Source: Marchantia polymorpha subsp. ruderalis
Lineage: Eukaryota; Streptophyta; Marchantiopsida; Marchantiales; Marchantiaceae
Length of the DNA: 64,000 bases
Reading direction: 5' to 3'
NCBI GenBank assembly: GCA_037833965.1
Contig: AP031356.1
Location: 8,950,501 to 9,014,500, forward strand
The notes beneath the pieces were generated by a model. The model saw nothing but the letters and a program-made list of their open reading frames with translations. It made no database searches and had not been told where the DNA came from. The position numbers were made by a program, and so were the translations under genes. Positions 14,033 to 44,496 of the stretch are shown one piece after another (the stretch's first letter is position 1; the number at the start of each line of letters is the position of its first letter).

Positions 14033-14068
14033 CGTAGTGCAGTGTAGTGCTAGTTAGGACTTAGAAGG

Positions 14069-14097
14069 TATAAAATAGTTCCAGGCGTTTTGCCTGG
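14069..14097 (+). promoter_or_regulatory. LTR core promoter: TATA box followed by a hairpin
   Basis: TATAAAATA (14069-14077) is followed by CCAGGC-GTTTT-GCCTGG (14081-14097), a 6-bp stem. Equivalent pairs are in every LTR here that retains this part. In element A and in the solo LTR at 47.7 kb the stem is CAAGGC/GCCTTG, a compensated change. The usual TATA-to-start distance puts the RNA start at or just after the hairpin, so everything upstream, including ORF3, is U3. Confidence 0.75.
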
Positions 14098-14768
14098 GGT
14101 TCTTTCCCATCAGAAGTGCAGATCAGGAACCCATTTCCTTTGCGTGTTTGTGTCCTTGAGTTCTGTCACCACGCACGAGGAGTTACAACTTAGCGTTCCG
14201 CATTTTGTAACTGAACACAGGTCCACACTGAAGGACTCACTGTGAAACATTCCAGTAACACAACAACAGTCTATTGAAGAGTTTGAATTCTCAGGCACTT
14301 GTCATTCCCAGAAATACTACAGGGGTTACCCTCAAGGCACCTGCTGCAGCGTAACCTGAATTTACAACCAAGGCTTACACGAAGTAGCAAAACTTCACTT
14401 TGGCATTCAGGGGAAAAATCCCAAAGGAGTACAATCAGAAAGAAACACTCGAAGGTGTAGGGGCAAAACTGTTCAAGTATCTAACTAGTCACTGGCTCTG
14501 AGCATCGGCAGTCACCCGCAGGTGCAGATCCGAACTACTCAAGTCTCTAACCAATGTACTAGCTCTGAACATTCGGCCGAAGGCCTTCAGCTACAAAATG
14601 CGGAACGCTAAGTTGTAACTCCTCGTGCGTGGTGACAGAACTCAAGGACACAAACACGCAAAGGAAATGGGTTCCTGATCTGCACTTCTGATGGGAAAGA
14701 ACCCCAGGCAAAACGCCTGGAACTATTTTATACCTTCTAAGTCCTACCTAGCACTACACTGCACTACG

Positions 14769-17658: not shown

Positions 17659-17791
17659 TGCGTTCCTGGAGTTCGCTCGCCCGCTCATTCTACTTCCGCA
17701 CTGCCCGCGCTTCTTTCTCTCTCGGCAAACTCTAATCGCCCTCAATTCCAAATCACGCGCATTCACTTCTCCCTCAATCAACAAGAAATCT

Positions 17792-17796
17792 CCTGC
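17792..17796 (+). repeat. Target-site duplication CCTGC of element A (left copy)
   Basis: CCTGC immediately precedes TGTAATAACCC at 17797, and the same five bases follow the other LTR end at 33325-33329. Removing the element restores a sequence matching the uninterrupted LTR near 470-490. Confidence 0.95.
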
Positions 17797-18710
17797 TGTA
17801 ATAACCCACCAAAGGCTAAAACTGCAGTATGGTGGTAAAAAGATCGAACCCACAGGGACAGAGGCAACACACAGAGTAAAAGTGTCACATTTAACAGACT
17901 TTTGGTAGAGTTTGAATTCTAGGCGACTGTCACTCCCAGAAATACTGCAGTGCTCGACTCGGAGGCTCGACTCGGAGGAGGATCTCAACTCGGAGGATGC
18001 TCGGAGGATGCACGGTACAGCTTGGTCACTTAACACACACACACACACACCTGAAACTGGCAAAAAGCACAACTCGGAGGTCGGTCAGGACCTCCGCTTC
18101 GGATTTCAGGAGGAAAGTGTCTCGCAAGTTCACTCAGAGGTTCTGCAGGAAGTGCCTCCCACTCCGGCTTTTACTGCCCTTCCGCCAGGAACTAGCGGGG
18201 GTACCCGGACTGGACTTCTCACTTCGGAACGAAGCCTCTACGTACGCCGTGGACGTCACCCTCGACTATCACACAAAACGCAGGGAGTGCAGACCCGACT
18301 GAGAACTTACTGAAAACACGATCCAGTAACACACACAACCTGAATTACAAACCAAGGTTTACACGAAGTAATGAAACTTCACATTGGCATTCAGGGGAAA
18401 CTTCCCGTAGGAGTACAATCAGGATATGTCACTCGAAGGAGTAAGGGGGAACTGTTCAAGTATCTAACTCGCAGCCGGCTCTGAGTATCAGAAATCACCC
18501 GCAGGTGCAGATCCGCACTACTCAAGTCTCTAACCGGGTACTAGCTCTGAACATTCAGCCGAAGGCCTTCAACTACAACATACGGTAACTTCGCTATGCT
18601 GCAGCTTCTCTACGTGGTGCCAGGACCAAAATGCACAAACACGCCAAGAAAGTGAGTTCCTGATCTGCACTTCCGAAACTGGAAGAGTCCCAAGGCAAAA
18701 CGCCTTGATC

Positions 18711-18719
18711 TACTTTATA
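18711..18719 (-). promoter_or_regulatory. TATA box of the element A 3' LTR
   Basis: TATAAAGTA lies 34 bp downstream of the ORF3 stop. The identical box in the 5' LTR (29370-29378) would drive the genomic RNA. The same motif at the same distance occurs in the B, B3 and C LTRs. Confidence 0.75.
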
Positions 18720-18752
18720 CTCTCAAAAGATCCTAACTAGCACTACGCTATC

Positions 18753-21308
18753 CTATCTACCACTCGCAGTATCTGCGCGAAACCAAACTACTCTACTGCA
18801 CTCAGCAGATCCGGTGCTGCGCCTCCTGCGCGCCGGACTGCTCCGCGTACTATCTCTACCTTGCCAGTCTTCCGACCGGCTGCGTAACCCCAGGCGTCGG
18901 AGCGCTGCAGTGACTTCCGACTGCAAGTGCGCCATAGTGTCGCGCGCACCCGACAAGAAGGTTTCTAATTTTCTCGCCACTCGCCGCCGACTCCGACTGT
19001 CACCTTCCGTCAATGCCGCCGCCCGAAGCTCGAACTCCCTGAGTGTAACCCTCTCTTGAGCTGCCACCTCCCAATGGGTGTATCCGTTTAGACAACGAGT
19101 CACCCGTGCCGCCAACTCTCCTCGTGCCCTGCAGCTGCTCTCCACCTCTGCCAGCTGCATTTCTAAATCCGCGCGTTGTGTCCTCAAATCCGAGCACTCG
19201 GTTTGCAAGTTGCACAACAACTCCTCATCCTCCTTGCGGGCTTTTTGACTTTCCTCTAAGGCGCGCGTCTGGCGCGTAAGCTCGGCTGCTAGTACTTTGT
19301 TCTGTCTCCGCTCCTCCTGCAGTTCCGACTCGATCTTTGCCCGTATTAGTTCGGCCTCCGCCTGACTCTTCGTCGCCGCATCCTCCTTCTGCTGCTGCAA
19401 GGCTTGGTACAGCTTCTGGGTGACCGCCAGGTGTTGTCTGAGGGCGGTGTTCCTTTCCACATATACTTGGCAACTAGAGGCCCACTTTGCCACCTTGATC
19501 CTCGTCCTTCGCCTGATAGTCTCCACATAAGACTGCGGTTTTAAGGCACTTCCGTATTTGGATGTCTTGCGATCCAGATATCGCAGGAGTGGAACTATCT
19601 GTTCGCACAGCACCCCTGTTGGCGTTTTCTGCACCGAATCCTCTTCTTGCTCTTCCGAGCTCGTCTCATCCTCAGTCTCGAGGATCTCAGTCGCCACCGA
19701 ATCCCTTGGCGACTCCCTGGAACTGTGGCGCGCAGCAGCTTCTGCTGCGACTGCTGCTCCACTGCCTGCTAAAATATCCAGGGCAGTGGGAGATCCCACT
19801 GCTTGAGCCCCTGTTCCGGCTCGATCTTCGGTTTGTGAAGGGGTCGACGCCGCAGTGACTTTTGTCACTCTTGCACCGCCCGCTTCTGCTGCCTGTCCTT
19901 CCGGCGCAATCTGCGCGGAAGGTGTTCTTGCTGAAGGTGCGTCCGCCGAAGGCGTCCGCACGCTGGTCGTTGGCCCCATCCGTCTCGCAGTCGGCGAATC
20001 CGGCTGACTCTCTGTTGTCCGACTCGCAGTCGGCCGACCAGCAGTTGTCCGACTGGGAGTCGGATATACCCTGCGCGTCTTGACTCCACTTGGCCTGTTT
20101 GCTGGTGGCGTTCTTCCAGAAGTGCCTTCCGCCGAAGACGACCCTCTGAGGATTGTTGGCTCGTCAGCCAAACTCTCTTCCGCTTCCGGCCTGCTGTCCG
20201 GTTCAACGCGCCGTTCAGTTGGCCTTCCTTCCGCTTGTCGACCTTCAGTCATCCGACTCGCAGTCGGCCGGTCGTCAGTCCGTCCATCTCCTCCCGAAGG
20301 CCGTGGTGCCTTCTGTGCAGAGGTTTCTGCCGTCTTCCCTAGGACCTGAGCAATTATCTCTTCCTGCGTGAGATTCCGCCGGGTCGGAGTTCGCCTGGTC
20401 TCCTCAGTAACAGTTGGCATTCTGCGTGCCCTCTGTTTTGGTCGACTATGAGGCTCGGGGGTGGGCCGACCACGAGTCGGCGCAGCTGGTACTTCCGGCT
20501 GCCTGTCCTCAGGTCTCTCATCCCACTTCCGCTTGCGCGGAATGCGCTCACTTCGACGTTCTTCTGCTGCTCTGGCTGGAGCCGGAGCCGGAGGCGTACT
20601 GGCAGGTTCCTCGTCCGGATCCGTGTCTACTTCGGCCTCCCTCGAATATCTACCTGGATAAGACCGGCTCAGCTGCGGAAACCGAGTTTTCTCAGCATTC
20701 GTCAAACATCCCATCGCCCGGTAAAACACGATTAAGTAAGGCGATAGATGATTGAGCGTTCCTCCCCTCTCTTCTTGCGCATGTTGGCGCGTCACCTTCC
20801 ACAGGAGCCGTGCCCAATGCACCGGAGCTCCTGACAACACTAGCTCCACGAACTCTACCTGCCAACCATGCATGTAAGCGGTCTTGGTCGGCTGCAATAT
20901 CTGCAGCAATGCTGTCGCGACATTTCTCCGCAATCGATCCTTGTAATCCCGAGTCCGGAAACCGTTCTTGGGATGTCTAGCCACCTTGAAGAGCTCATTG
21001 TAAGAGACTTCTTCCTCCTGGGACACTTTCACGCTGTCGGCCTCGAAGAGGAGATCCCCTTCCTCGCCGGCACACCTGCCCAACACCTGCGCCCAATTGC
21101 AAATTTCCCATCTCTCTGGGTGTGGGCGAAATCCGCGAGAAGGCTTGTGTCTCTCTTGCAGATACTCGCGCACCATCTCCGGACACGTCCAATTCCACCC
21201 CCAGAGGAGAAAATCGAGCTTCAGCCTCGTCAGCACATCTTGAAATGCGCGTAGACCGATCTGCGGCACCCTGAGTGGAGACACTCGCAGCTGGGGAACC
21301 TTCGACAT
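18753..21308 (-). CDS. ORF3 in the element A 3' LTR (U3-encoded protein, unknown function)
   Basis: An 851-codon open frame from the conserved ATG at 21308. A non-ATG extension upstream to 21419 is open but not conserved. It is the A-family homologue of the 957-codon B protein. The N-terminal compact region has LDFLLWGWNWTC, ICNWAQVLGRCAG, FRTRDYKDRLR and GGTLNHLSPYLIVFY. A Pro/Thr/Arg-rich middle includes repeated PTASR-like words made by palindromic DNA. Then come an acidic patch (EDETSSEEQEEDS), the block CEQIVPLLRYLDRK shared with all copies, and a coiled-coil C-terminus with GYTHWEVAAQERVTLREFE and LRRLGLRSRSEDWQG. In genomic RNA this copy follows pol, so it occupies the env-like position. 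No signal peptide or membrane segment is evident. Candidate roles are capsid-related, structural or regulatory; none is shown. Confidence 0.8.
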   Translation of the reverse strand: MSKVPQLRVSPLRVPQIGLRAFQDVLTRLKLDFLLWGWNWTCPEMVREYLQERHKPSRGFRPHPERWEICNWAQVLGRCAGEEGDLLFEADSVKVSQEEEVSYNELFKVARHPKNGFRTRDYKDRLRRNVATALLQILQPTKTAYMHGWQVEFVELVLSGAPVHWARLLWKVTRQHAQEERGGTLNHLSPYLIVFYRAMGCLTNAEKTRFPQLSRSYPGRYSREAEVDTDPDEEPASTPPAPAPARAAEERRSERIPRKRKWDERPEDRQPEVPAAPTRGRPTPEPHSRPKQRARRMPTVTEETRRTPTRRNLTQEEIIAQVLGKTAETSAQKAPRPSGGDGRTDDRPTASRMTEGRQAEGRPTERRVEPDSRPEAEESLADEPTILRGSSSAEGTSGRTPPANRPSGVKTRRVYPTPSRTTAGRPTASRTTESQPDSPTARRMGPTTSVRTPSADAPSARTPSAQIAPEGQAAEAGGARVTKVTAASTPSQTEDRAGTGAQAVGSPTALDILAGSGAAVAAEAAARHSSRESPRDSVATEILETEDETSSEEQEEDSVQKTPTGVLCEQIVPLLRYLDRKTSKYGSALKPQSYVETIRRRTRIKVAKWASSCQVYVERNTALRQHLAVTQKLYQALQQQKEDAATKSQAEAELIRAKIESELQEERRQNKVLAAELTRQTRALEESQKARKEDEELLCNLQTECSDLRTQRADLEMQLAEVESSCRARGELAARVTRCLNGYTHWEVAAQERVTLREFELRAAALTEGDSRSRRRVARKLETFLSGARDTMAHLQSEVTAALRRLGLRSRSEDWQGRDSTRSSPARRRRSTGSAECSRVVWFRADTASGR

Positions 21309-22665
21309 TGCGTTGCCTGCACACACACAAACGTTCTCCCTTTCGCTCGCTCTCTCACAATCGCCACTGTGCGTCGGCCACTCAAGCACTGACTGCTCAC
21401 TCTCTCTGCGCTCGTTCAAGATCGCTACTCACAATTCTTTCAAGGTCCGCCAAGATCCTTGCGCAACTCGTCTCCGCACTCTCTACTCTCACTGCAGGTT
21501 GCTCCGCCCTTGCGCGTAATCTTGGAACTGGAAATCGCAAAGTCAAGAATGAGAGAATGAGACTGGAGCGCAGTCTTTTCTTCTCCGATTTCAAGAACGT
21601 CCAACGTTCTTACTGGTTGCAACGTACGCAGCCGGCTATACGGCTTAACGGTTCGCCCTTTGCATGCGCGAATTCACGTCTCCGCATTGCGCGCATTCGC
21701 ATGCTTAAACGTTGAATTCTCCCGCCGCCGCCACCTTCCGGACTCGAGTCCGCTGCAGGGTATACGTCGGCCCTGTTGTCTTTTCCTAACCCGCCCTTCT
21801 CCGGAGGCGTGTCGCCGCTGGCGCGTTCATTATCCGTCGGCGCCTTGCTGGAGGCGCACATCCAGCCGGAGCGAATTACGCCGGCGCGCAGTCGTACCGC
21901 CTATTTTGTCCTTTATGCCTCGTCCGTTGCTGCCAGCGCATATCCGTCAGCGCAACTCATGCCAGCGCATCCGGCCGTCAGCGCCACGTCGGAGGCGTAC
22001 ATCCGACCGGCGCTTTCCTTCCATGAACAGCCGCCAAGGGCGCTTCCGACTCTGAGTTGGTTTCCTCCTGTGAGCGCGTGATTCCGCCGAAGGCGCATTG
22101 CCGAGGGCGTACGGGAATCCTTTCCGGCTGTGAACCCTAGCGCGAACGGCGCATGTCCGGCTACGAGTTTTCCGACGCTCATAACTTCTCCATTCCTGAT
22201 CCATCTCCGGCGCTCTTGGACTCGTTAGAACGAGCGTCCCGAGCTCTTTCTAATGCAACTTCAACCAACTGGATCTACCGTATATCCCGATTGTTATGAA
22301 GGTTTTCCCTTTCCGCGCTAGCGGCGCTTCGCCGAAGGCGCACTCATGGTCGGATGCCTTTAGAGGTCCGGGCCCTTCTCCTGACGTCTTTAGCAAAACC
22401 TCCTCCTGAGGTGTCTGCGCCGGAAGCGTAGCTTCCTTATACGCTAGAGGCGCGTGAGTAGAGACACCTAAAAAAGGAGCTTTTGCCGAAGGCGCCGAAG
22501 ACGTTGGCGTTGGTACATCCGACTACGTGATTCTTTGTGCCCTCGTGACGATCTCATCAATCCACTCTATTTAGCGTACCCTTCTCTAGCTACAAACACT
22601 GCTTTGGTACTAGTTTTCTAAAATTGTTTAAATTCTGCAAAAAAAACAAAAAGCGTGTTACCACA

Positions 22666-22682
22666 TGCCCCCCTCCTCAATT
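22666..22682 (-). other. Polypurine tract of element A
   Basis: On the minus strand AATTGAGGAGGGGGGCA directly precedes the 3' LTR start TGTGG. This is the expected plus-strand DNA priming site. It lies 20 bp after the pol stop codon. Confidence 0.9.
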
Positions 22683-22702
22683 GTGAGCGCCCACGCGAAC
22701 AT

Positions 22703-25543
22703 TTACACGTGGTATTTCTTCAGACGCCATCCGTTCACGCGGGTGCCTAACCATTCTCCCGTCAGTTCTGCGAGTTGGATGGATCCATTTGGGAAAACTT
22801 CTATCACCTTGTAAGGTCCCATCCACCTCAAGTGGAGCTTGCCTGGAAATCTAGCATGTCTGCTATCGTATAGCAGAGCCAAATCGCCCTTCTCCAGCAG
22901 TACTGGTTTGAGTCTTCGATCGTACTTCTCCTTCCGCCTGAGTTGTAATTGCTTTGTCCGATCTTCGGCCTCTTGACGTCTTTCCTCCAGTGCCATTACC
23001 TCTTGCAGTCGATATGCCTGACTTTCCTCCGCGTCCAGCCTTCTCTGATCTAAGGTCCTCTTCGTAGGTATCTCGAATTCGATGGGTAAGATCGGGTGCT
23101 GCCCATAAACTAGGAAGTAAGGTGTTTGCCTGGTGGTGACTTTTTCTGCCGTTCTATATGCCCATAAGGCGACCGGTAGCTTGGTGTCCCAGTCATGAGC
23201 ATGGTTTACAGTCACCTTGAGGAGTATCTTACAGAGTAATCCATTGGACTTCTCTGTCAGACCATTTGCCTTGGGGTTGTATGGAGTAGTCTTTCGATGC
23301 TTAATCTGGAAGTGCCGCGTCAAACTTTCTATCACCTGATTCAGAAAGTGCGTTCCTCTGTCACTGACTATTTCTAGGGGGCACCCGTAGCGTGTGATGA
23401 TTGATTCGAATAGGAACCGTGCTACTGCGGCTGCGTCGTCGTGCCTTGTGGCTTCTGCCTCCACCATCTTGGTCGCATAGTCTGTTGCTACCAATATGTA
23501 GCGCCTGCGCGTGCCTTTAGTGACAGGTTGTATTGGTCCCACGAAGTCGATCCCCCACTTTTCAAATGGTGCCAATGGCATGATTGGTGTAAGAGGCCAT
23601 CTCGTGGTCGGAGTCGGCCTTCCCGTCCTCTGGCAGCTGTCGCATTTGCGAACGTAGTCGTGTACATCTTTGAACATCGTCGGCCACCAGTATCCTGCAT
23701 TCACAATTTTGGTCACTGTATTTCTGGTGGCGTAGTGACCACCAGCGTCTTCTGTGTGCATGGCTTTGACAACTCGCGGTACTTCAGACTCCTCTAGACA
23801 TCTGCACAACCTCTCGTCTGCCATTTTCTTGAACAAGACCCCTTGTTGGAGCTGGTAAGGTCCCGCTTTATGAACGAAGACTGTGCGCTGCTCTGCATCC
23901 AATCCTTCCGGACATTGGAGTGTGAGCAGGAACCTGTATAAGTCCGCGTACCTGGACTCATGGCTGGCGGACAACTGAAAAAGTTGTTCGTCGGGAAAAT
24001 CATCCACGACTTCCTCCTCTATGGGTTCGGTCCATAGTCGGGAGAGGTAGTCCGCGTTCTCATGGTGAACGCCTTTCCGTGTCTGTACAGTGTAGGTGAA
24101 TTCCTGCAGCAGTAGTACCCACCTGGCAATTCGTCCGGACAGATCCGCCTTCTTCACCAGGTGCTGTAAGGCGTAATGATCTACATGAAACACGAACTCA
24201 TAGCAGATCAAATAATGTCGGAACTTCTTACAGGAGTACACCATTCCCAACGCCTCCCTCTCAGTTGTCGTGTATTTCTTCTCTGCTGCTGACAACTGAC
24301 GACTCGCGAAGTAAATCGGGTAGTCTTTCTTGTTGTCGTCCTTCTGACTGAGAACCACTCCGATTGCAAACGCCGACGTGTCTACATAGACATGGAAAGG
24401 TCTGTTCCAATCCGGACTTCTCAGAACCGGAGCAGTCGTCAGTTTGGCTTTGAGCGTTTCAAAGGCCAGCTGTTGCTCCTTGCCCCACACATAGGGTTCA
24501 TCCTTCTTAAGCAGCTTCGTCAGATCGGCTGCCAAGATGGCATACATATTTATGAACCTTCTGTAATAACCTACATGGCCAAGGAAGGCCCTCAACTCAC
24601 GCAGATTCGTTGGCGGCTGCAGTTCGAGAATAATCTTCACCTTCTCTACATCCACTGCAATGCCATCGGACGAAACTCGGTGCCCCAGCAGGATTCCGCT
24701 GGTCATGAAGAAAAAACATTTCTCAGGGTGTAAGGACAAGCTGCTTTCCCTACACCTGTCTAACGTTTGCCGAAGATGGTTAAGGTGCTCCGACCTCTTA
24801 CCGAAGACACAAAAGTCGTCGATGAAAATTTCTAGGAACTTCCTCAGGTGCTCTTGGAAAATGTTTGTCATCATCCGCTGGAACGTCGCTGGCGCGTTGC
24901 ACAGACCGAACGGCATCTTGTGATAAGCATAGGTTCCCCAGTCGGTTGTGAAGGTTGTTTTGTCCTTGTCCTGTTCCCTGATGGACACCTGGTTGTAGCC
25001 GGAGAATCCGTCTAGGAAACTGTAGCATTCATGCCCTGCTACATGGTCTAAAATAGAGTCCGTGAAAGGAAGAGGGTGATGGTCCTTCCTCGTTGCTGCG
25101 TTCAGCTTTCGGAAGTCCTGGCACACCCGGATCTTACCCGTCAGTTTCTTGGGCACGATCACGATAGGCGACACCCACTCGCTACTGAGTACCGGGTAGA
25201 TGATTCCTGCGCTCAGGTACTTATCGATTTCGTCCTTCACCAATAATGAATATTTTGGGTTGAGCCTGTATTGGCGTTGGCGAACCGGAACTGCCTCGTC
25301 CAACAAGTCGATCCTGTGCTCTCCATACCTTGCAGGTATGCCTTTCATGTCTTCAATCTTCCATGCGAAGACATCCTCATACTGGCGAAGAAACGCCTGT
25401 ACCCTGTTCAACTCTTCTCCTTGTACCTGGCTTGACACCTTCAAGCCTTTACCTGGACTGAGCTGCAGTTCGCAGCAATCACTCGGGTCAACAATCCCCT
25501 CTGTGTGACTGATCTCGCTTCTGCCCAGTCCGGCTGCTAGTTG
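22703..25543 (-). CDS. pol: Element A Pol: reverse transcriptase, RNase H, integrase
   Basis: This is translated as a continuation of Gag after the UAG at 25546-25544, in the same frame. Numbering from residue 1 at 25444, reverse transcriptase spans about 50-240, with FLDGFSGYNQ near 143 and the active-site FIDD at 207-210 (the usual form is YxDD). RNase H has D355, E397, D422 and D465. The integrase zinc site is H563, H570, C601, C604. The catalytic D633, D695, E731 lie in GIDFVGP, VSDRGTHF and NPKANGLTEK. A GPY motif is at 876-878, and the tail is NGWRLKKYH with no chromodomain. The protein copies element RNA into DNA and integrates it. All key residues are present. Part of the RT N-terminus lies in the 33 codons between the UAG and position 25444. 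Confidence 0.96.
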   Translation of the reverse strand, partial: QLAAGLGRSEISHTEGIVDPSDCCELQLSPGKGLKVSSQVQGEELNRVQAFLRQYEDVFAWKIEDMKGIPARYGEHRIDLLDEAVPVRQRQYRLNPKYSLLVKDEIDKYLSAGIIYPVLSSEWVSPIVIVPKKLTGKIRVCQDFRKLNAATRKDHHPLPFTDSILDHVAGHECYSFLDGFSGYNQVSIREQDKDKTTFTTDWGTYAYHKMPFGLCNAPATFQRMMTNIFQEHLRKFLEIFIDDFCVFGKRSEHLNHLRQTLDRCRESSLSLHPEKCFFFMTSGILLGHRVSSDGIAVDVEKVKIILELQPPTNLRELRAFLGHVGYYRRFINMYAILAADLTKLLKKDEPYVWGKEQQLAFETLKAKLTTAPVLRSPDWNRPFHVYVDTSAFAIGVVLSQKDDNKKDYPIYFASRQLSAAEKKYTTTEREALGMVYSCKKFRHYLICYEFVFHVDHYALQHLVKKADLSGRIARWVLLLQEFTYTVQTRKGVHHENADYLSRLWTEPIEEEVVDDFPDEQLFQLSASHESRYADLYRFLLTLQCPEGLDAEQRTVFVHKAGPYQLQQGVLFKKMADERLCRCLEESEVPRVVKAMHTEDAGGHYATRNTVTKIVNAGYWWPTMFKDVHDYVRKCDSCQRTGRPTPTTRWPLTPIMPLAPFEKWGIDFVGPIQPVTKGTRRRYILVATDYATKMVEAEATRHDDAAAVARFLFESIITRYGCPLEIVSDRGTHFLNQVIESLTRHFQIKHRKTTPYNPKANGLTEKSNGLLCKILLKVTVNHAHDWDTKLPVALWAYRTAEKVTTRQTPYFLVYGQHPILPIEFEIPTKRTLDQRRLDAEESQAYRLQEVMALEERRQEAEDRTKQLQLRRKEKYDRRLKPVLLEKGDLALLYDSRHARFPGKLHLRWMGPYKVIEVFPNGSIQLAELTGEWLGTRVNGWRLKKYHV

Positions 25544-25546
25544 CTA
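25538..25546 (-). promoter_or_regulatory. Leaky-stop signal UAG-CAA-CUA between gag and pol (element A)
   Basis: Gag ends in TAG (25546-25544), followed directly by CAACTA; the pol frame continues in phase. UAG-CAR-YYA is the known tobamovirus-type readthrough context. B2 has TAG-CAA-TTA at the same place (37554-37546), which is the exact tobacco mosaic virus core. Keeping the motif while the third codon changes synonymously (CUA/UUA, both Leu) fits selection for readthrough. Confidence 0.85.
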
Positions 25547-28372
25547 TTCCTCATCCGGATACACCTCGTCTCCTTCCTCCTCAATGGAGCAGCAAGTGAC
25601 GTAGCCCACAAAGTCTTCCGACGTTTCGGTCTCTGAAGTGCATGATGAGCTGGTCTCCCCTCCGGTTGTGTAACCGGAGGTGGTGGAAGGTGTTTCGCCC
25701 TCATGGGGTACCTTGGTCCACGGTACGGTAATGACAGTCGGAGGGTCCGCAGGGCTACGGAACTGTAATCTCTTCCTACTCCAGTCACACCTTGCTTTGG
25801 CATCGTATAGCCACGGTCTGCCAAGCAGCACATCATAACCTTTCTTCATCAGAGGTTGCAGTATTATGTAGGACAGTTGAAAGTCCACTCCTCCAATGTT
25901 GGTTCTCACATTGCTCAACATTCCTAGTGGCATTCTGCGTGTTTGATCGGCTAGTCGCAATACTCGGGATGTAGGCTCGAAGGTCTGGAACCCCAAGGAG
26001 TTCGCTGTCTCCTCGGTCATGATATTCACGCCTGAGCCGGAGTCCACTGGTACCTTCTGAATGACGCAGCCTCCGATCTCTACTTCGATCTCTGGAGGTC
26101 CCAGGTCTCCTCCTTCCACTCTGTACACAGCCGGAAGTTTCTCTTTTCGGGGTTTGCGTGGTCGGCGCAACGAAAGCATCAGCATCCTCCTGTACGTCTT
26201 ATTGTCTTCCAACAACTGGTGGAAGGAAATATTTGCCCTCTGGCTCCCCATGTCTTTCACTATGTCGTAGGGAGTGTTGGAAGTCACGGCCGGAAGTTTC
26301 CCTGTACTCGCGGTCGGAAGTGGTGTAGGAGGCCTAACCGCCTTCCGGTCGTCGGATGTCATTCCGGCGCCCAGTGCTTCCTTGATGAGGTGACTCACCT
26401 CATCTTTGATGTCCGGAAGGTAATCTCGAGTCCGGAACTCTTCTGAATACCTGTCCGCCTTTTCTGAGTTCTGCTCCGGCTGGGTGTTTCTCATAGCCGG
26501 AGGTGTACTTGGCGTTCTCCTTTGGCCTTCTCTAACTTCTTTAGACTTCCTCCTCTCTTCCTTACGCTCGAGGCGGCGAGTGTCCTCATGGCCTTCTCCT
26601 CTCCGCTTCGAACTTCGGGTTTCTACCCGGCCGCACATTACTTCTTCCTCTGGCCATACTTCGTCTCCTTCAGCTGGGTCCAGACTCAGTTCTACCTGGT
26701 TGACTTGCACTTCTTCCTTGCCAGGTGTTGATACGAAACGCACGGCTGGCCTAGGGATTTGGGGCTGGTCACATTCAGCTGCTGTATGTCCGGACTTCTT
26801 GCAATTGCTGCACAATGGTGCATACCCCATTGGCTTCCTCGGGTGGGGACAACTTGGCGCGTAATGCCCCATGTCTCCGCAGTTGTAGCAACCATCGAAT
26901 TGTGGTCGAGGTCGGTTGTGATTTCCTGGAGGTGCCATGCGTCTTGGTGGGAGTGTACCCGCCATTTCCCTCGGAACAAAGCGCGGTATATGCACCGGTG
27001 GGTTCGGAGTTGTAGCTGGAGCTGTCTGTACTGAGTAGGCGGTGTCCTCAACCTGCTCAGCATAATACATAGGTGGCTCAGCATAATACATGGGGTTCTC
27101 CCACTGTGGTGCCCATTCGACCGCATTCACTGGGTAAGATGGCCTCGCGGACATGCACTCCGTGTTGGCATGTCCCACCTGTCCGCACGTAGTACACCAG
27201 AGATTCGCTCGTTGTCTCGCAGGTGATTTACGTCGGTCTTGGCCTCCCACCACATGAACTTTCAGGTCCGCAAAATTCTTCACCAGGTTATCTACCTTGG
27301 CTGCGATGTCCCCTTGAGTCTTCACTGGGATTCCCTTACCTCGATCCTTCTTCTTGGTCGCACTGCGTTTCTTCTTTCGTCTTTCTTCTTCTGAAGATGA
27401 CGAGTCCTCTTCCTCTTCCGAGGAAGAACTTGATTCGGAGGAGCTTGATTCTTCTGTCGAGGAAGGCGAGTTCCTTCTCTTCCTACGTCCGCCTTGCGAC
27501 TTCTTCTTCGTCGACCGTCGGTCGCGTCTTCGAGTGTCAAGGGTTGACGTCTCAAAGGTCTCCGCGGAAGCTATCACATCTTGGATTGTGTCAGTCTTGC
27601 CTCTCCTACAGAAGGTCTCCATTTCTCTTGAGAGCCCTGTCACATACCAATCCACTGCCTGTTGTACCGAATACGGTTCTCCCGGGCCTGTCTTCGGAAT
27701 TCGATCTAGGAGGTCTTGGAATCTCTCCGTGTAGTCTCGAAGATTCTCCTTCCGCTCGCGTCGAAGATTTCGAAGCCGGGTCAGAACTCGACTGTCATAT
27801 CCGAGTTCGCGGAACCGCTTCAGAAACTTTTCCTTGAGCTGAGCCCAGGTCCGGATGCCAGTGGGGTCGGTGCTCTCATGGTTGTACCAGCTACGCGCTC
27901 GTCTGCGTAGCAGGCTAGGAAAGATTCGTAATCTGTCTTCATCACTGGTCTCACGATTGGCGATGGAGACAGACTCGAAGAGCTTTATGTATGAATCTGC
28001 ATCATCGTCGTCGCCCGTTCCCGTGTATCTTGGATACGAATGTTTGGTGGTAGGTTGGGAAAACACCTGGCGGAGATTGGCTTGATGTTCTGCCATCGGT
28101 GATCCTGTCGACGGACTGATCCTAGGTTGGCCAAACTCAGGAAGAGTTCCCGTCGGAGGGATGTCCAATAGAACTGTTAGCTCAATGCTCTCGGTAGGTG
28201 AACTGGAACGCCTTTGTCTTCCAGTAGTCGGTGATGGCGATCTTTCTGCAGAGTCCTCACCAGGAGTCTTCTTTTTAGTTCGCCGTTTTGTTTCCACGGC
28301 TTTTTCTGAATCTCGACGGAGTTTCCGTATGGCTCTCGCACTCAGGTTTCCCACACTATCGCTCGTCGACAT
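25544..28372 (-). CDS. gag: Element A Gag-protease
   Basis: A 942-residue protein starting at ATG 28372, 43 bp after the PBS. The capsid-like retrotransposon Gag region is at about 110-275, with WAQLKEKFLKRF and LLDRIPKTGPG. A Ser/Glu-rich acidic-basic tract is at about 300-345. Three CCHC zinc knuckles lie at 393-406, 495-508 and 521-534, where most plant Ty3/gypsy Gag proteins have one. The aspartic protease is at about 760-860, with the catalytic D777-SGS and YDVLLGRPW near 846. The C-terminal 80 residues are Ser/Thr/acidic and end at the leaky UAG. It forms the particle and processes the polyprotein. Gag alone would be the main product, with Gag-Pol as the readthrough minority. Confidence 0.95.
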   Translation of the reverse strand: MSTSDSVGNLSARAIRKLRRDSEKAVETKRRTKKKTPGEDSAERSPSPTTGRQRRSSSPTESIELTVLLDIPPTGTLPEFGQPRISPSTGSPMAEHQANLRQVFSQPTTKHSYPRYTGTGDDDDADSYIKLFESVSIANRETSDEDRLRIFPSLLRRRARSWYNHESTDPTGIRTWAQLKEKFLKRFRELGYDSRVLTRLRNLRRERKENLRDYTERFQDLLDRIPKTGPGEPYSVQQAVDWYVTGLSREMETFCRRGKTDTIQDVIASAETFETSTLDTRRRDRRSTKKKSQGGRRKRRNSPSSTEESSSSESSSSSEEEEDSSSSEEERRKKKRSATKKKDRGKGIPVKTQGDIAAKVDNLVKNFADLKVHVVGGQDRRKSPARQRANLWCTTCGQVGHANTECMSARPSYPVNAVEWAPQWENPMYYAEPPMYYAEQVEDTAYSVQTAPATTPNPPVHIPRFVPREMAGTLPPRRMAPPGNHNRPRPQFDGCYNCGDMGHYAPSCPHPRKPMGYAPLCSNCKKSGHTAAECDQPQIPRPAVRFVSTPGKEEVQVNQVELSLDPAEGDEVWPEEEVMCGRVETRSSKRRGEGHEDTRRLERKEERRKSKEVREGQRRTPSTPPAMRNTQPEQNSEKADRYSEEFRTRDYLPDIKDEVSHLIKEALGAGMTSDDRKAVRPPTPLPTASTGKLPAVTSNTPYDIVKDMGSQRANISFHQLLEDNKTYRRMLMLSLRRPRKPRKEKLPAVYRVEGGDLGPPEIEVEIGGCVIQKVPVDSGSGVNIMTEETANSLGFQTFEPTSRVLRLADQTRRMPLGMLSNVRTNIGGVDFQLSYIILQPLMKKGYDVLLGRPWLYDAKARCDWSRKRLQFRSPADPPTVITVPWTKVPHEGETPSTTSGYTTGGETSSSCTSETETSEDFVGYVTCCSIEEEGDEVYPDEE

Positions 28373-28415
28373 TCACCGAGCATTGCTGCTCAAGGTTTCT
28401 GGTGTTGACGCACTG

Positions 28416-28433
28416 TCCCCGGCAGCGGCGCCA
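28416..28433 (-). other. Primer-binding site (tRNA-Asp type), element A
   Basis: On the minus strand TGGCGCCGCTGCCGGGGA begins 22 nt after the 5' LTR end. It is complementary to the 3' end of plant tRNA-Asp with one mismatch to the usual motif, as in many plant Athila-like elements. B2 has the identical motif at 40433-40450, also 22 nt from its LTR. Confidence 0.85.
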
Positions 28434-28455
28434 AAAAGAAGTTGTCGGCTCCTTA

Positions 28456-31400
28456 TGTAATAACCCACCAAAGGCTAAAACTGCAGTATGGTGGTAAAAA
28501 GATCGAACCCACAGGGACAGAGGCAACACACAGAGTAAAAGTGTCACATTTAACAGACTTTTGGTAGAGTTTGAATTCTAGGCGACTGTCACTCCCAGAA
28601 ATACTGCAGTGCTCGACTCGGAGGCTCGACTCGGAGGAGGATCTCAACTCGGAGGATGCTCGGAGGATGCACGGTACAGCTTGGTCACTTAACACACACA
28701 CACACACACCTGAAACTGGCAAAAAGCACAACTCGGAGGTCGGTCAGGACCTCCGCTTCGGATTTCAGGAGGAAAGTGTCTCGCAAGTTCACTCAGAGGT
28801 TCTGCAGGAAGTGCCTCCCACTCCGGCTTTTACTGCCCTTCCGCCAGGAACTAGCGGGGGTACCCGGACTGGACTTCTCACTTCGGAACGAAGCCTCTAC
28901 GTACGCCGTGGACGTCACCCTCGACTATCACACAAAACGCAGGGAGTGCAGACCCGACTGAGAACTTACTGAAAACACGATCCAGTAACACACACAACCT
29001 GAATTACAAACCAAGGTTTACACGAAGTAATGAAACTTCACATTGGCATTCAGGGGAAACTTCCCGTAGGAGTACAATCAGGATATGTCACTCGAAGGAG
29101 TAAGGGGGAACTGTTCAAGTATCTAACTCGCAGCCGGCTCTGAGTATCAGAAATCACCCGCAGGTGCAGATCCGCACTACTCAAGTCTCTAACCGGGTAC
29201 TAGCTCTGAACATTCAGCCGAAGGCCTTCAACTACAACATACGGTAACTTCGCTATGCTGCAGCTTCTCTACGTGGTGCCAGGACCAAAATGCACAAACA
29301 CGCCAAGAAAGTGAGTTCCTGATCTGCACTTCCGAAACTGGAAGAGTCCCAAGGCAAAACGCCTTGATCTACTTTATACTCTCAAAAGATCCTAACTAGC
29401 ACTACGCTATCCTATCTACCACTCGCAGTATCTGCGCGAAACCAAACTACTCTACTGCACTCAGCAGATCCGGTGCTGCGCCTCCTGCGCGCCGGACTGC
29501 TCCGCGTACTATCTCTACCTTGCCAGTCTTCCGACCGGCTGCGTAACCCCAGGCGTCGGAGCGCTGCAGTGACTTCCGACTGCAAGTGCGCCATAGTGTC
29601 GCGCGCACCCGACAAGAAGGTTTCTAATTTTCTCGCCACTCGCCGCCGACTCCGACTGTCACCTTCCGTCAATGCCGCCGCCCGAAGCTCGAACTCCCTG
29701 AGTGTAACCCTCTCTTGAGCTGCCACCTCCCAATGGGTGTATCCGTTTAGACAACGAGTCACCCGTGCCGCCAACTCTCCTCGTGCCCTGCAGCTGCTCT
29801 CCACCTCTGCCAGCTGCATTTCTAAATCCGCGCGTTGTGTCCTCAAATCCGAGCACTCGGTTTGCAAGTTGCACAACAACTCCTCATCCTCCTTGCGGGC
29901 TTTTTGACTTTCCTCTAAGGCGCGCGTCTGGCGCGTAAGCTCGGCTGCTAGTACTTTGTTCTGTCTCCGCTCCTCCTGCAGTTCCGACTCGATCTTTGCC
30001 CGTATTAGTTCGGCCTCCGCCTGACTCTTCGTCGCCGCATCCTCCTTCTGCTGCTGCAAGGCTTGGTACAGCTTCTGGGTGACCGCCAGGTGTTGTCTGA
30101 GGGCGGTGTTCCTTTCCACATATACTTGGCAACTAGAGGCCCACTTTGCCACCTTGATCCTCGTCCTTCGCCTGATAGTCTCCACATAAGACTGCGGTTT
30201 TAAGGCACTTCCGTATTTGGATGTCTTGCGATCCAGATATCGCAGGAGTGGAACTATCTGTTCGCACAGCACCCCTGTTGGCGTTTTCTGCACCGAATCC
30301 TCTTCTTGCTCTTCCGAGCTCGTCTCATCCTCAGTCTCGAGGATCTCAGTCGCCACCGAATCCCTTGGCGACTCCCTGGAACTGTGGCGCGCAGCAGCTT
30401 CTGCTGCGACTGCTGCTCCACTGCCTGCTAAAATATCCAGGGCAGTGGGAGATCCCACTGCTTGAGCCCCTGTTCCGGCTCGATCTTCGGTTTGTGAAGG
30501 GGTCGACGCCGCAGTGACTTTTGTCACTCTTGCACCGCCCGCTTCTGCTGCCTGTCCTTCCGGCGCAATCTGCGCGGAAGGTGTTCTTGCTGAAGGTGCG
30601 TCCGCCGAAGGCGTCCGCACGCTGGTCGTTGGCCCCATCCGTCTCGCAGTCGGCGAATCCGGCTGACTCTCTGTTGTCCGACTCGCAGTCGGCCGACCAG
30701 CAGTTGTCCGACTGGGAGTCGGATATACCCTGCGCGTCTTGACTCCACTTGGCCTGTTTGCTGGTGGCGTTCTTCCAGAAGTGCCTTCCGCCGAAGACGA
30801 CCCTCTGAGGATTGTTGGCTCGTCAGCCAAACTCTCTTCCGCTTCCGGCCTGCTGTCCGGTTCAACGCGCCGTTCAGTTGGCCTTCCTTCCGCTTGTCGA
30901 CCTTCAGTCATCCGACTCGCAGTCGGCCGGTCGTCAGTCCGTCCATCTCCTCCCGAAGGCCGTGGTGCCTTCTGTGCAGAGGTTTCTGCCGTCTTCCCTA
31001 GGACCTGAGCAATTATCTCTTCCTGCGTGAGATTCCGCCGGGTCGGAGTTCGCCTGGTCTCCTCAGTAACAGTTGGCATTCTGCGTGCCCTCTGTTTTGG
31101 TCGACTATGAGGCTCGGGGGTGGGCCGACCACGAGTCGGCGCAGCTGGTACTTCCGGCTGCCTGTCCTCAGGTCTCTCATCCCACTTCCGCTTGCGCGGA
31201 ATGCGCTCACTTCGACGTTCTTCTGCTGCTCTGGCTGGAGCCGGAGCCGGAGGCGTACTGGCAGGTTCCTCGTCCGGATCCGTGTCTACTTCGGCCTCCC
31301 TCGAATATCTACCTGGATAAGACCGGCTCAGCTGCGGAAACCGAGTTTTCTCAGCATTCGTCAAACATCCCATCGCCCGGTAAAACACGATTAAGTAAGG

Positions 31401-33324
31401 CGATAGATGATTGAGCGTTCCTCCCCTCTCTTCTTGCGCATGTTGGCGCGTCACCTTCCACAGGAGCCGTGCCCAATGCACCGGAGCTCCTGACAACACT
31501 AGCTCCACGAACTCTACCTGCCAACCATGCATGTAAGCGGTCTTGGTCGGCTGCAATATCTGCAGCAATGCTGTCGCGACATTTCTCCGCAATCGATCCT
31601 TGTAATCCCGAGTCCGGAAACCGTTCTTGGGATGTCTAGCCACCTTGAAGAGCTCATTGTAAGAGACTTCTTCCTCCTGGGACACTTTCACGCTGTCGGC
31701 CTCGAAGAGGAGATCCCCTTCCTCGCCGGCACACCTGCCCAACACCTGCGCCCAATTGCAAATTTCCCATCTCTCTGGGTGTGGGCGAAATCCGCGAGAA
31801 GGCTTGTGTCTCTCTTGCAGATACTCGCGCACCATCTCCGGACACGTCCAATTCCACCCCCAGAGGAGAAAATCGAGCTTCAGCCTCGTCAGCACATCTT
31901 GAAATGCGCGTAGACCGATCTGCGGCACCCTGAGTGGAGACACTCGCAGCTGGGGAACCTTCGACATTGCGTTGCCTGCACACACACAAACGTTCTCCCT
32001 TTCGCTCGCTCTCTCACAATCGCCACTGTGCGTCGGCCACTCAAGCACTGACTGCTCACTCTCTCTGCGCTCGTTCAAGATCGCTACTCACAATTCTTTC
32101 AAGGTCCGCCAAGATCCTTGCGCAACTCGTCTCCGCACTCTCTACTCTCACTGCAGGTTGCTCCGCCCTTGCGCGTAATCTTGGAACTGGAAATCGCAAA
32201 GTCAAGAATGAGAGAATGAGACTGGAGCGCAGTCTTTTCTTCTCCGATTTCAAGAACGTCCAACGTTCTTACTGGTTGCAACGTACGCAGCCGGCTATAC
32301 GGCTTAACGGTTCGCCCTTTGCATGCGCGAATTCACGTCTCCGCATTGCGCGCATTCGCATGCTTAAACGTTGAATTCTCCCGCCGCCGCCACCTTCCGG
32401 ACTCGAGTCCGCTGCAGGGTATACGTCAGCCCTGTTGTCTTTTCCTAACCCGCCCTTCTCCGGAGGCGTGTCGCCGCTGGCGCGTTCATTATCCGTCGGC
32501 GCCTTGCTGGAGGCGCACATCCAGCCGGAGCGAATTACGCCGGCGCGCAGTCGTACCGCCTATTTTGTCCTTTATGCCTCGTCCGTTGCTGCCAGCGCAT
32601 ATCCGTCAGCGCAACTCATGCCAGCGCATCCGGCCGTCAGCGCCACGTCGGAGGCGTACATCCGACCGGCGCTTTCCTTCCATGAACAGCCGCCAAGGGC
32701 GCTTCCGACTCTGAGTTGGTTTCCTCCTGTGAGCGCGTGATTCCGCCGAAGGCGCATTGCCGAGGGCGTACGGGAATCCTTTCCGGCTGTGAACCCTAGC
32801 GCGAACGGCGCATGTCCGGCTACGAGTTTTCCGACGCTCATAACTTCTCCATTCCTGATCCATCTCCGGCGCTCTTGGACTCGTTAGAACGAGCGTCCCG
32901 AGCTCTTTCTAATGCAACTTCAACCAACTGGATCTACCGTATATCCCGATTGTTATGAAGGTTTTCCCTTTCCGCGCTAGCGGCGCTTCGCCGAAGGCGC
33001 ACTCATGGTCGGATGCCTTTAGAGGTCCGGGCCCTTCTCCTGACGTCTTTAGCAAAACCTCCTCCTGAGGTGTCTGCGCCGGAAGCGTAGCTTCCTTATA
33101 CGCTAGAGGCGCGTGAGTAGAGACACCTAAAAAAGGAGCTTTTGCCGAAGGCGCCGAAGACGTTGGCGTTGGTACATCCGACTACGTGATTCTTTGTGCC
33201 CTCGTGACGATCTCATCAATCCACTCTATTTAGCGTACCCTTCTCTAGCTACAAACACTGCTTTGGTACTAGTTTTCTAAAATTGTTTAAATTCTGCAAA
33301 AAAAACAAAAAGCGTGTTACCACA
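28456..33324 (-). mobile_element. Element A 5' LTR (4869 bp)
   Basis: An exact positional copy of the 3' LTR shifted by 10,659 bp, with the same termini, TATA box (29378-29370) and hairpin (29366-29350). Here the promoter drives the element's own RNA, and the ORF3 copy lies upstream of the transcription start. A single G/A difference was noticed at 32428. Confidence 0.95.
29412..31967 (-). CDS. ORF3 copy in the element A 5' LTR
   Basis: Its product is identical to that of the ORF3 at 18753-21308 (851 codons from ATG 31967). It lies upstream of the LTR TATA box, so the LTR promoter cannot transcribe it in this position. Any expression would need a separate promoter in the 1.36 kb before it, or read-in from outside. 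It is regenerated at each transposition because U3 is copied from the 3' end of the RNA. Confidence 0.78.
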   Translation of the reverse strand: MSKVPQLRVSPLRVPQIGLRAFQDVLTRLKLDFLLWGWNWTCPEMVREYLQERHKPSRGFRPHPERWEICNWAQVLGRCAGEEGDLLFEADSVKVSQEEEVSYNELFKVARHPKNGFRTRDYKDRLRRNVATALLQILQPTKTAYMHGWQVEFVELVLSGAPVHWARLLWKVTRQHAQEERGGTLNHLSPYLIVFYRAMGCLTNAEKTRFPQLSRSYPGRYSREAEVDTDPDEEPASTPPAPAPARAAEERRSERIPRKRKWDERPEDRQPEVPAAPTRGRPTPEPHSRPKQRARRMPTVTEETRRTPTRRNLTQEEIIAQVLGKTAETSAQKAPRPSGGDGRTDDRPTASRMTEGRQAEGRPTERRVEPDSRPEAEESLADEPTILRGSSSAEGTSGRTPPANRPSGVKTRRVYPTPSRTTAGRPTASRTTESQPDSPTARRMGPTTSVRTPSADAPSARTPSAQIAPEGQAAEAGGARVTKVTAASTPSQTEDRAGTGAQAVGSPTALDILAGSGAAVAAEAAARHSSRESPRDSVATEILETEDETSSEEQEEDSVQKTPTGVLCEQIVPLLRYLDRKTSKYGSALKPQSYVETIRRRTRIKVAKWASSCQVYVERNTALRQHLAVTQKLYQALQQQKEDAATKSQAEAELIRAKIESELQEERRQNKVLAAELTRQTRALEESQKARKEDEELLCNLQTECSDLRTQRADLEMQLAEVESSCRARGELAARVTRCLNGYTHWEVAAQERVTLREFELRAAALTEGDSRSRRRVARKLETFLSGARDTMAHLQSEVTAALRRLGLRSRSEDWQGRDSTRSSPARRRRSTGSAECSRVVWFRADTASGR

Positions 33325-33329
33325 CCTGC
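33325..33329 (+). repeat. Target-site duplication CCTGC of element A (right copy)
   Basis: CCTGC follows the LTR end TTACCACA at 33324 and matches 17792-17796. The interrupted B2 LTR resumes at 33330. Confidence 0.95.
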
Positions 33330-34673
33330 GCGGCGACGTCGAGAATGTTCAGCAGCCAGCAGATGGATGCGCGCAGCGCGCACAAGAGATTGGAATCGCG
33401 AATTCAAGAATGGGACGTTCTCCGCCGCCCGGTCGAAGGTCATGGTCGGCTCCTGCTCGTGAAGAACGTCTCACTTGATGGCCGCGCCGGCTGTACGCTG
33501 GAACGGTCTTCGCTCTCACGCGCGGCTTCACGCTCCGCCGTCGTCGCTTAAACTCTCACGCTCGAATTGGCGGATTTGAACTCCGCGAGCGTATTACCCC
33601 GCGGACATGGGGGCGTAGCGCCGAAGGCGAGTTTTCCGCCTTGCGCGGTACACTTGTTCGTACCGCCCCTCGGCCAATCCCCCTCTGCCTTGACGCGTGT
33701 GTCCGCATGTCGGACAAAAGTTCAACTCCTGCCTGTGCGCAGGCAGGAGCCTCGGCGGATGCTCCGCCGGCGCGGAACTTGAACATCCTCCTGTGCACAG
33801 GCGTTCTCCTGTGCACAGGCGAATTCCGTCCGCGGCGCTGCGCTGGCGCGGAAGGCGTTGACCGTGGTCAGCCGTCTCCGTCCAGTCTGTCCGTTCCTTG
33901 TCTCTCCGTCGGCGCTTCCGCCGCCGCAACTCCGTCCGTCCAAGAGCGCATCCACCCGTCCCGTCCGCATGGTCCGTACCGATTTGATTACTCTGGCGGC
34001 TCTTCCGACGTACGCGGCGCTGCGCTGGCGCGGAAGGCGCCGTACACTTTCTACCTCACAAGGCGCATTTCTAGGGCCCAAGGCGGATTTTCCGCCGACG
34101 CCGAAGCGCCTGTGCGTAGGCGGACTTCGCGCCTCCCCTAACCCTACTTCGCCTGTGCACAGGCGAACGCCTTCGTCCGCGCATAGGACAAAACTTGATT
34201 CCCCCTTCCGCGTAGGCGGAATTCGCGCCGGTTGCGAACTCTTTCCGCCGTAGGCGACCGCCTCCGTTTCTTCCAATAGTGATAACTCCCTAAGTCCTCA
34301 TCCGTTCCAAGCGTTCTTGGGCTCGTTGGAATCAGTGCGTCGAGCTCTTTCCAACGGGACCCTAAATTGGTCAAGGCGCCCGAGGGTTGAACTAATTATG
34401 AAGGGTTTCCCTACAGCCGCGGACGCAAGCTCCGAAGGCGGATTTTGCGCCTTGCGTCGTAGGGGTCCTAACTGCAGAGCTCGCAGGGAGGGTGGTGCCT
34501 GTCCTTACTGCTGCACCCCCAAATCCCAGATTCTACAAGATCCCTCGAGAATCCCCGCGATCTTCCGGATTCACTCCGTTTTGATGTACCGAAGGCTATT
34601 TACAATGCTGCCAGGGTACAGTTTTCCAAAAATGTTTTAATTTCCTCAAAATTGCCAAAAGTGGGGTACCACA
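33330..34673 (-). mobile_element. B2 3' LTR, part proximal to pol
   Basis: The beginning of the B2 3' LTR on the minus strand, from TGTGGTACCCC at 34673 to the A insertion. It is U3 sequence upstream of ORF3 and has no gene that I recognise, but it is dense in CCTGTGCACAGG, CGCCTTCGGCG and CCGCGG palindromes. The corresponding region of the 5' LTR has been deleted. Confidence 0.9.
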
Positions 34674-44257: not shown

Positions 44258-44295
<38 letters not shown>

Positions 44296-44491: not shown

Positions 44492-44496
44492 CATAT

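What the first reader, a model, noticed from the sequence alone, without database searches (positions are those of the whole stretch)
17797..33324. A retrotransposon that keeps a complete 851-codon gene inside each LTR (in U3)
Seen: both 4869-bp LTRs of element A hold the same intact ORF3, which ends 34 bp before the LTR TATA box. The TSD, PBS and PPT fix the LTR borders exactly, so ORF3 is inside the LTR and not next to it. The B, B3 and C LTRs have the same layout. Known: plant Ty3/gypsy extra ORFs normally lie between pol and the 3' LTR, or before gag; a U3-borne gene is known in a few retroviruses (MMTV sag). Inference: ORF3 is an env-position gene that U3 has engulfed, so it is expressed from the 3' end of the RNA and duplicated at every jump.
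Basis: partly seen in the sequence, partly recalled or inferred. Interest (0 to 1): 0.93.

Follow-up and report, generated by a model that had tools for sequence, protein, structure and literature searches.

The report
Complete gene inside retrotransposon end repeats
A very common jumping element in a liverwort genome carries a complete, selectively maintained gene inside each of its two long end repeats, a layout best known from a mouse retrovirus.

Summary
Element A (minus strand, 17797-33324) has two 4869-bp LTRs differing at one base, a 5-bp target duplication, PBS and PPT; each LTR holds the same 851-codon ORF3, ending 33 nt before a TATA box. Protein matches identify Marchantia polymorpha. 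Seven full-length and seven solo insertions with matching duplications hold ORF3 inside the LTR. A family-B element elsewhere has the same layout with an 866-codon ORF3. From listed places, 50 of 53 PBS-PPT pairs enclose 5767-5802 bp, room for gag-pol only. ORF3 is under purifying selection: dN/dS 0.21-0.25 between subfamilies in five copies chosen by non-coding DNA. It has no Pfam family at the curated level, no transmembrane-like stretch, and named relatives only in M. polymorpha, so 'env' is not supported. Best reading: a U3-borne accessory gene copied into both LTRs at every jump, probably with its own U3 promoter. No RNA data were available; RNA start, expression route and protein function are inferred. 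Nearest precedent: MMTV sag. New variant of a known kind.

The parts
28456..33324 (-). 5' LTR of element A, 4869 bp
17797..22665 (-). 3' LTR of element A, 4869 bp, one base different
29412..31967 (-). ORF3, 851 codons plus stop, copy in the 5' LTR
18753..21308 (-). ORF3, identical copy in the 3' LTR
31968..33324 (-). U3 upstream of ORF3 (1357 bp), candidate ORF3 promoter region; short blocks shared with families B and B3
   Evidence: promoter function is inference
29373..29378 (-). TATA box of the 5' LTR, after a 33-nt gap behind the ORF3 stop
18714..18719 (-). TATA box of the 3' LTR
28456..29372 (-). LTR tail, taken to hold R and U5; exact limits unknown
   Evidence: aligned across families; R/U5 assignment is inference
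28416..28433 (-). PBS TGGCGCCGCTGCCGGGGA, 22 nt after the LTR (tRNA-Asp type: recalled, not tested)
25544..28372 (-). gag with protease-like end, 942 aa
   Evidence: protease matches lie below Pfam cut-offs
22703..25444 (-). pol: RT, RNase H, integrase, 913 aa; its stop lies 37 nt before the 3' LTR
22666..22678 (-). PPT GAGGAGGGGGGCA
17792..17796 (.). target duplication, 3' side (GCAGG on the minus strand)
33325..33329 (.). target duplication, 5' side (GCAGG on the minus strand)
33325..34673 (-). start of the 3' LTR of the family-B element into which A inserted; its PPT lies at 34674 onward
11159..14032 (+). family-B ORF3 of copy B1, 957 codons open; its LTR is cut off at 14215

Best explanation
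This is an abundant Ty3/gypsy LTR retrotransposon of Marchantia polymorpha whose U3 region contains a whole accessory gene, ORF3. SHOWN: ORF3 lies within the LTR borders, in sense with gag-pol, between the LTR start and a conserved TATA box; it is in both LTRs and in solo LTRs; it is kept open and under purifying selection. INFERRED: the genomic RNA starts just after the TATA box, so it carries ORF3 once, near its 3' end, and reverse transcription copies that U3 to both ends, making two ORF3 genes per jump. The 5' copy lies upstream of that start, so it can be expressed only from another promoter; most likely ORF3 has its own promoter in the 1.36 kb of U3 before it and uses the LTR's poly(A) site, which would make each LTR, solo LTRs included, a self-contained ORF3 gene. 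The protein (conserved N-terminal domain, Ser/Thr/Pro-rich middle with basic motifs, probably coiled-coil C-terminal part) most likely acts in the nucleus as a regulatory or pre-integration accessory factor, as proposed for additional-ORF proteins of angiosperm Grande and Retand elements.
For: LTR borders, PPT, PBS and target duplication; 7 full-length and 7 solo insertions with matching 5-bp flanks and ORF3 inside; 53 of 53 scored places full length, 48 without a stop; second family with the same layout; 50 of 53 PBS-PPT pairs enclose 5767-5802 bp; 1219 LTR-PBS and 1144 PPT-LTR junctions, controls 0; TATA box aligned in five LTRs of families A, B and C; codon-position bias between A and B; dN/dS 0.21-0.25 in copies picked by U3 DNA; upstream blocks shared with B/B3; no transmembrane-like stretch, RKRK/RKRR and RRRR motifs. 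Precedents read: sag with several promoters, one inside the 3' LTR U3 (PMC4667437 passages); Grande gene23 with its own promoter and a nuclear protein (PMC7264820 parts 1-2).
Against: No RNA data: RNA start, poly(A) site and ORF3 message are unseen; a poly(A)-retrocopy pattern found 0 places. The upstream block nearest the ATG is weak (E 0.033 with B, 2e-4 with B3). Sequence before the ATG also looks like a splice acceptor (my reading). The ORF3 fold is unknown (pLDDT 55, no fold match), and coiled-coil and nuclear roles rest on weak hits and motifs. Of eight 3'-LTR length readings on contig 1, four are 4.7-5.3 kb, three (at two PPT places) are 3.6-3.9 kb, too short to be sure that they hold ORF3. 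Recent within-subfamily differences are nearly even (3 silent, 4 replacement).
Confidence: 0.6

Rival explanations
1. ORF3 is in U3 and functional, but is expressed like a retroviral env: a spliced or otherwise subgenomic message from the R start of the genomic RNA into ORF3 of the 3' LTR, with no promoter of its own.
For: The bases before the ATG read TTTGTGTGTGTGCAG|GCAACGCAATG in A and CTCCAG|GAACGCAATG in B (my reading as an acceptor, not tested). A public gene model, P0089, joins integrase to the ORF3 N-domain. Barley Bagy2 splices its env-like message (PMC7264820).
Against: Gene models are predictions. The acceptor-like run is not conserved in B3 (ATTTCAAGAACGCAATG, read). U3 is unusually long before ORF3 (1357 bp in A), which splicing would not need.
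Confidence: 0.25
2. The main RNA starts upstream of ORF3 in the LTR, so ORF3 is a 5' leader gene in R or U5, before gag, and the box after it is not the main promoter.
For: No RNA start is known; a weak shared block lies about 240 nt before the ATG; model P0015 joins an ORF3 piece to gag.
Against: A TATA box with a well-aligned downstream tail stands directly after ORF3 in A, B and C, where a U3/R promoter is expected. R would have to be several kb long. P0015 also holds a long repeat of Lys/Asp/Glu/Arg between the two pieces, so it looks like a rearranged locus.
Confidence: 0.1
3. ORF3 is a passenger: open because copies are young, with no protein function for the element.
For: Copies are young, and most of the family-A sample was picked by protein score, which favours conserved copies.
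Against: Families A and B, with saturated silent sites, keep the N- and C-terminal domains; dN/dS 0.21-0.25 in copies picked by non-coding DNA, 5 of 6 of them open; shuffled LTRs never exceed 246 codons.
Confidence: 0.04

Closest known systems
MMTV sag (superantigen gene in the U3 of a betaretrovirus)
   Same: A gene in the U3 part of the LTR, carried by solo LTRs as well; several promoters known, one inside the 3' LTR U3 (PMC4667437 passages).
   Different: Retrovirus of mice; 'the majority' of sag is in U3, here the whole frame; no similarity to Sag seen (no Pfam match); ORF3 is much longer (851-957 codons; length of Sag recalled).
Additional ORFs of angiosperm Grande, RIRE2 and Retand elements (TRP28)
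   Same: Extra gene beyond pol, kept in most copies; nuclear or DNA-related proteins proposed; weak coiled-coil or Smc-like content (PMC7264820 parts 1-2, PMC11963269 passages).
   Different: Those lie in the internal region, mostly antisense, beside LTRs of 315-1194 bp in Retand; ORF3 is sense, inside a 4.9-5.1-kb LTR, and has no PF04195 match.
Env-like ORFs of Athila and Bagy2
   Same: Sense extra ORF at the 3' end of the RNA (if RNA starts at the TATA box).
   Different: Theirs is internal, between pol and the 3' LTR, and some have transmembrane domains (PMC7264820); ORF3 is in the LTR and has none.
Retrosat2 (rice; long LTRs and ORF0)
   Same: Ty3/gypsy element with LTRs over 3.2 kb and an extra ORF of unknown function that evolves faster than the rest (PMC3485330 passages).
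   Different: ORF0 lies upstream of gag-pol; the passages seen do not place it in the LTR.
[not shown]
   Same: Reported from both Marchantia genomes studied, without the additional RNase H (PMC10508981 section 5); element A also shows one RNase H region only.

Membership tests
Ty3/gypsy LTR retrotransposon | two LTRs, PBS, PPT and target duplication | tested here: met
Ty3/gypsy LTR retrotransposon | order gag, protease, RT, RNase H, integrase | tested here: met
   gag, RT, RNase H and integrase above Pfam cut-offs, protease matches below them (23.1 against 24.3 bits)
Tat lineage | RT places within Tat on a tree | not tested
   [not shown]
U3-borne gene, as MMTV sag | gene within the LTR borders | tested here: met
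U3-borne gene, as MMTV sag | gene lies upstream of the RNA start (U3, not R or U5) | tested here: inconclusive
   conserved TATA box directly after ORF3, but no RNA ends
U3-borne gene, as MMTV sag | protein related to Sag | tested here: not met
   no Pfam match of that kind in 16 relatives up to E 10
env-like ORF | between pol and the 3' LTR, outside the LTR | tested here: not met
   pol ends 37 nt before the LTR; 50 of 53 internal regions 5767-5802 bp
env-like ORF | transmembrane segment | tested here: not met
   highest 19-residue mean hydropathy 1.22 (A) and 1.14 (B); usual threshold of about 1.6 recalled
TRP28 additional ORF (Retand, Grande) | PF04195 domain | tested here: not met
   not among the 17 families matched by 16 relatives up to E 10
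TRP28 additional ORF (Retand, Grande) | antisense, between pol and the 3' LTR | tested here: not met
   ORF3 is sense and inside the LTR

The most novel reading that the evidence does not exclude
Each LTR is a complete, independently transcribed gene unit, so that solo LTRs (5678 exact LTR ends against 1219 exact LTR-PBS junctions) form a dispersed ORF3 gene family that outlives the elements and acts on them in trans. The usual end of an LTR element, recombination to a solo LTR, would then spread its accessory gene instead of ending it.
Probability: 0.3. Interest if true: 0.86.

Novelty: new variant of a known kind. Interest (0 to 1): 0.74.

Why it matters
LTRs are ordinarily non-coding (so PMC4667437) and are treated as such. 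An abundant plant retrotransposon with a selected gene of 851-957 codons inside the LTR would mean that solo LTRs can be protein genes, and that divergence between LTRs is not always a neutral clock over its whole length (here 2556 of 4869 bp are coding). It would show that the U3-gene layout of MMTV also arose in plants, and it offers a tractable model plant in which to ask what the additional-ORF proteins of plant retrotransposons do.

Tried and rejected
(1) ORF3 as envelope: rejected, no transmembrane-like stretch and no homology. (2) ORF3 as TRP28/PF04195: no match. (3) Relatives outside Marchantia: three protein searches (16, 42 and 101 proteins) gave only M. polymorpha among those with names; the unnamed rows are contigs of unknown origin or the window's own protein. 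Each search scored 8000 candidates at most. (4) Poly(A) retrocopies to map the RNA 3' end: 0 places. (5) Fold of the N-domain: two AlphaFold2 models of low confidence (pLDDT 47.9 and 55.0); the PDB fold search gave 9 matches up to E 10, none at E <= 0.001. (6) Profile search of solved structures: best E 0.028, taken as chance. (7) Rfam and tRNA scans of the window: 0 each. (8) A divergent old family (P0016-like) was listed, but its LTRs could not be read.

Limits. Loci L001-L030 were picked by protein score, which favours conserved ORF3; the check with copies picked by U3 DNA covers six ORF3s. Rows dropped: one search counted 31 distinct sequences of 41 LTR rows (some loci overlap); the dN/dS table has five of the six copies (L051, with gaps totalling 9 nt, was only tested for stops). 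One search used the 100 listed PBS places of 1219, 83 of the 100 listed PPT places of 1144 (the other 17 lie beyond the end of the PBS list) and 100 listed LTR ends of 5678; tandem elements may add pairs. Genome searches score only the best 40-81 candidates, so copy numbers by search are lower bounds. The pattern counts need exact matches.

Literature. None listed a plant retrotransposon with a complete gene inside the LTR; the library is open-access only, so this does not prove that none is in print.

Full report
Check of the observation. Element A lies on the minus strand. Its LTRs (17797-22665 and 28456-33324) are 4869 bp each and differ at one base, LTR position 897. GCAGG is duplicated on the outer flanks, GAGGAGGGGGGCA precedes the 3' LTR, and TGGCGCCGCTGCCGGGGA starts 22 nt after the 5' LTR. 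The internal part codes for gag with a protease-like end (942 aa) and for RT-RNase H-integrase (913 aa); pol stops 37 nt before the 3' LTR. ORF3 occupies LTR positions 1358-3913, and TATAAA begins after a 33-nt gap. The longest stop-free sense run in the LTR is 891 codons; 300 shuffles reached 246 at most.

Where it is from. The window is G000:C7:8950501-9014500 of a 241-Mb assembly in nine contigs. The named protein relatives of ORF3 are all from Marchantia polymorpha, so I take the genome to be that liverwort. Element A sits in the 3' LTR of a family-B element, upstream of that copy's ORF3, within a nest of B-type LTRs.

Is ORF3 inside the LTR elsewhere? A protein search of the genome scored 53 places, all covering 1-851 at 98-100% identity; 48 have no stop and 5 have one. 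In the loci read, seven full-length insertions have matching 5-bp outer flanks (GCAGG, GTGGT, CGGTT, TTCGC, AGGCC, AAATG, GTTAC) and so do seven solo LTRs (CAGTG, TCCAC, GTAGC, GGCAC, CGTCA, CGCGG, AACCC), with ORF3 between the borders in each. Two of those LTRs, L012 (full-length) and L029 (solo), have one stop in ORF3. A family-B element on contig 6 has a 5086-bp 5' LTR, GCTAT on both outer sides, PPT, PBS, an 866-codon open ORF3 in that LTR and a TATA box after a 36-nt gap (of its 3' LTR only the two borders were read). Exact patterns occur 1219 times for the LTR-PBS junction, 1144 times for the PPT-LTR junction and 5678 times for the LTR end, with 0 for each reversed control. From the listed places 53 PBS-PPT pairs could be made; 50 enclose 5767-5802 bp, the others 4208, 4665 and 8013 bp. 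An internal region of 5.8 kb is filled by gag-pol and leaves no room for ORF3. Lengths of 3' LTRs could be read at six PPT places of contig 1: four readings are 4737-5321 bp, one place also reads 6530, and two places read 3566 or 3872, too short to be sure of ORF3. Full-length copies with ORF3 outside the LTR were not found within these limits.

Is ORF3 selected? Between families A and B, silent sites are saturated or nearly so. In the N-terminal domain dN is 0.38 and dS about 2.3 (ratio 0.16); in the C-terminal domain dN is 0.40; the middle is looser (0.69). On the same comparison pol has dN 0.06-0.07 and gag 0.25-0.32: ORF3 evolves several times faster than pol and somewhat faster than gag. 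Mismatches by codon position are 0.36/0.27/0.55 in the N-domain and 0.38/0.28/0.60 in the C-domain. Within family A, 31 distinct LTRs show no gap column in ORF3 against 27 outside it, and 90 silent to 57 replacement variants, where about 1:3 is expected without selection; this sample was picked by protein score and is biased. Six copies picked by their U3 DNA are more telling: four are open without gaps, one is open with gaps totalling 9 nt, one has a stop; five of them give dN/dS 0.21-0.25 against A at dS 0.07-0.08. Two comparisons inside that subfamily have 3 silent and 4 replacement changes each, too few to judge.

What the protein looks like. No Pfam family matched ORF3 of A at E <= 1. Among 16 relatives scanned up to E 10 the scattered hits are mostly coiled-coil proteins (CENP-K in 2 of 16, best E 0.0018); one Extensin hit at E 0.00019 looks like low complexity. 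There is no transmembrane-like stretch; RKRK and RRRR stand in A, RKRR and RRRR in B. The N-domain is predicted helical, but with low confidence (mean pLDDT 55), and no solved fold matched. The reading as a nuclear, partly coiled-coil accessory protein is inference.

How it probably works. The TATA box soon after the ORF3 stop aligns in A, B1, B2, B3 and C, with a well-aligned tail to the LTR end in the LTRs that have one, so the genomic RNA most likely starts there and ORF3 lies in U3. Then one ORF3, that of the 3' LTR, is in the genomic RNA, and reverse transcription makes two from it (established knowledge of LTR elements). The 5' copy lies upstream of that start and could be expressed only from another promoter. 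Upstream of ORF3, A shares short blocks with B and B3: the LTR start, LTR positions about 326-559, and one about 240 nt before the ATG that is weak (E 0.033 with B, 2e-4 with B3). This is compatible with an own promoter and no more. Grande offers a plant precedent for an additional ORF with its own promoter (PMC7264820, part 2), and MMTV sag one for several promoters (PMC4667437 passages). A spliced message is the main rival (acceptor-like letters before the ATG; gene model P0089). No RNA data could be consulted.

Origin. Angiosperm Retand elements carry additional ORFs between pol and a short 3' LTR, mostly antisense, with TRP28 and sometimes Smc domains (PMC11963269 passages). Here the PPT lies directly behind pol, and everything up to the TATA box belongs to U3. 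A shift of the plus-strand primer site from behind an internal ORF to just behind pol would turn such a region into U3 in one step. This is my hypothesis; ORF3 is in the other orientation and has no PF04195 match, so homology with those ORFs is not shown.

Verdict. A real, abundant and selected LTR-borne gene in a plant Ty3/gypsy element, most likely in U3: a new variant of a known kind. Open are RNA start, expression route and protein function.

Noticed in passing
G000:C6:13709682-13712387 (-): A divergent ORF3 (protein P0016) with an open frame of 902 codons and no stop, while most other places of that old family listed (81 scored) carry stops: a young survivor or a host-adopted copy. Its flanks could not be fetched.
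   Followed up: partly
L004, L015, L016, L021, L022: LTRs with a PPT upstream and an LTR-PBS junction downstream: tandem elements that share LTRs, e.g. three LTRs 10659 bp apart at C9:5363400-5387273.
   Followed up: no
L017 and L020 (C7:15.07-15.09 Mb): Same 16-bp upstream flank; one is a 5' LTR with PBS, the other a solo LTR with target duplication CGTCA. This may be one insertion seen in both states after a local duplication.
   Followed up: no
L014 (C6:16049341-16054893): A solo LTR whose outer flanks match the sequence of ORF3 itself: an insertion into another copy's ORF3.
   Followed up: no
G000:C1, about 2.34-2.88 Mb: LTR-PBS places repeat at an offset of about 406,369 bp (e.g. 2336150/2742519, 2412005/2818374, 2474619/2880988): a large duplication on that contig.
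   Followed up: no
window 29350-29366: CAAGGCGTTTTGCCTTG, a short inverted repeat just after the TATA box, kept with paired changes in some of the other LTRs: perhaps a hairpin at the RNA 5' end. Not folded or tested.
   Followed up: no
window 9664-17795 and 40473-44498: Family-B LTRs joined tail to tail at about 14213 and 43750-43778: rearranged, inverted neighbours within the nest.
   Followed up: no
window 28434-28455: 22 nt lie between the LTR end and the PBS, in A and in B: an unusually wide gap, kept across families.
   Followed up: no
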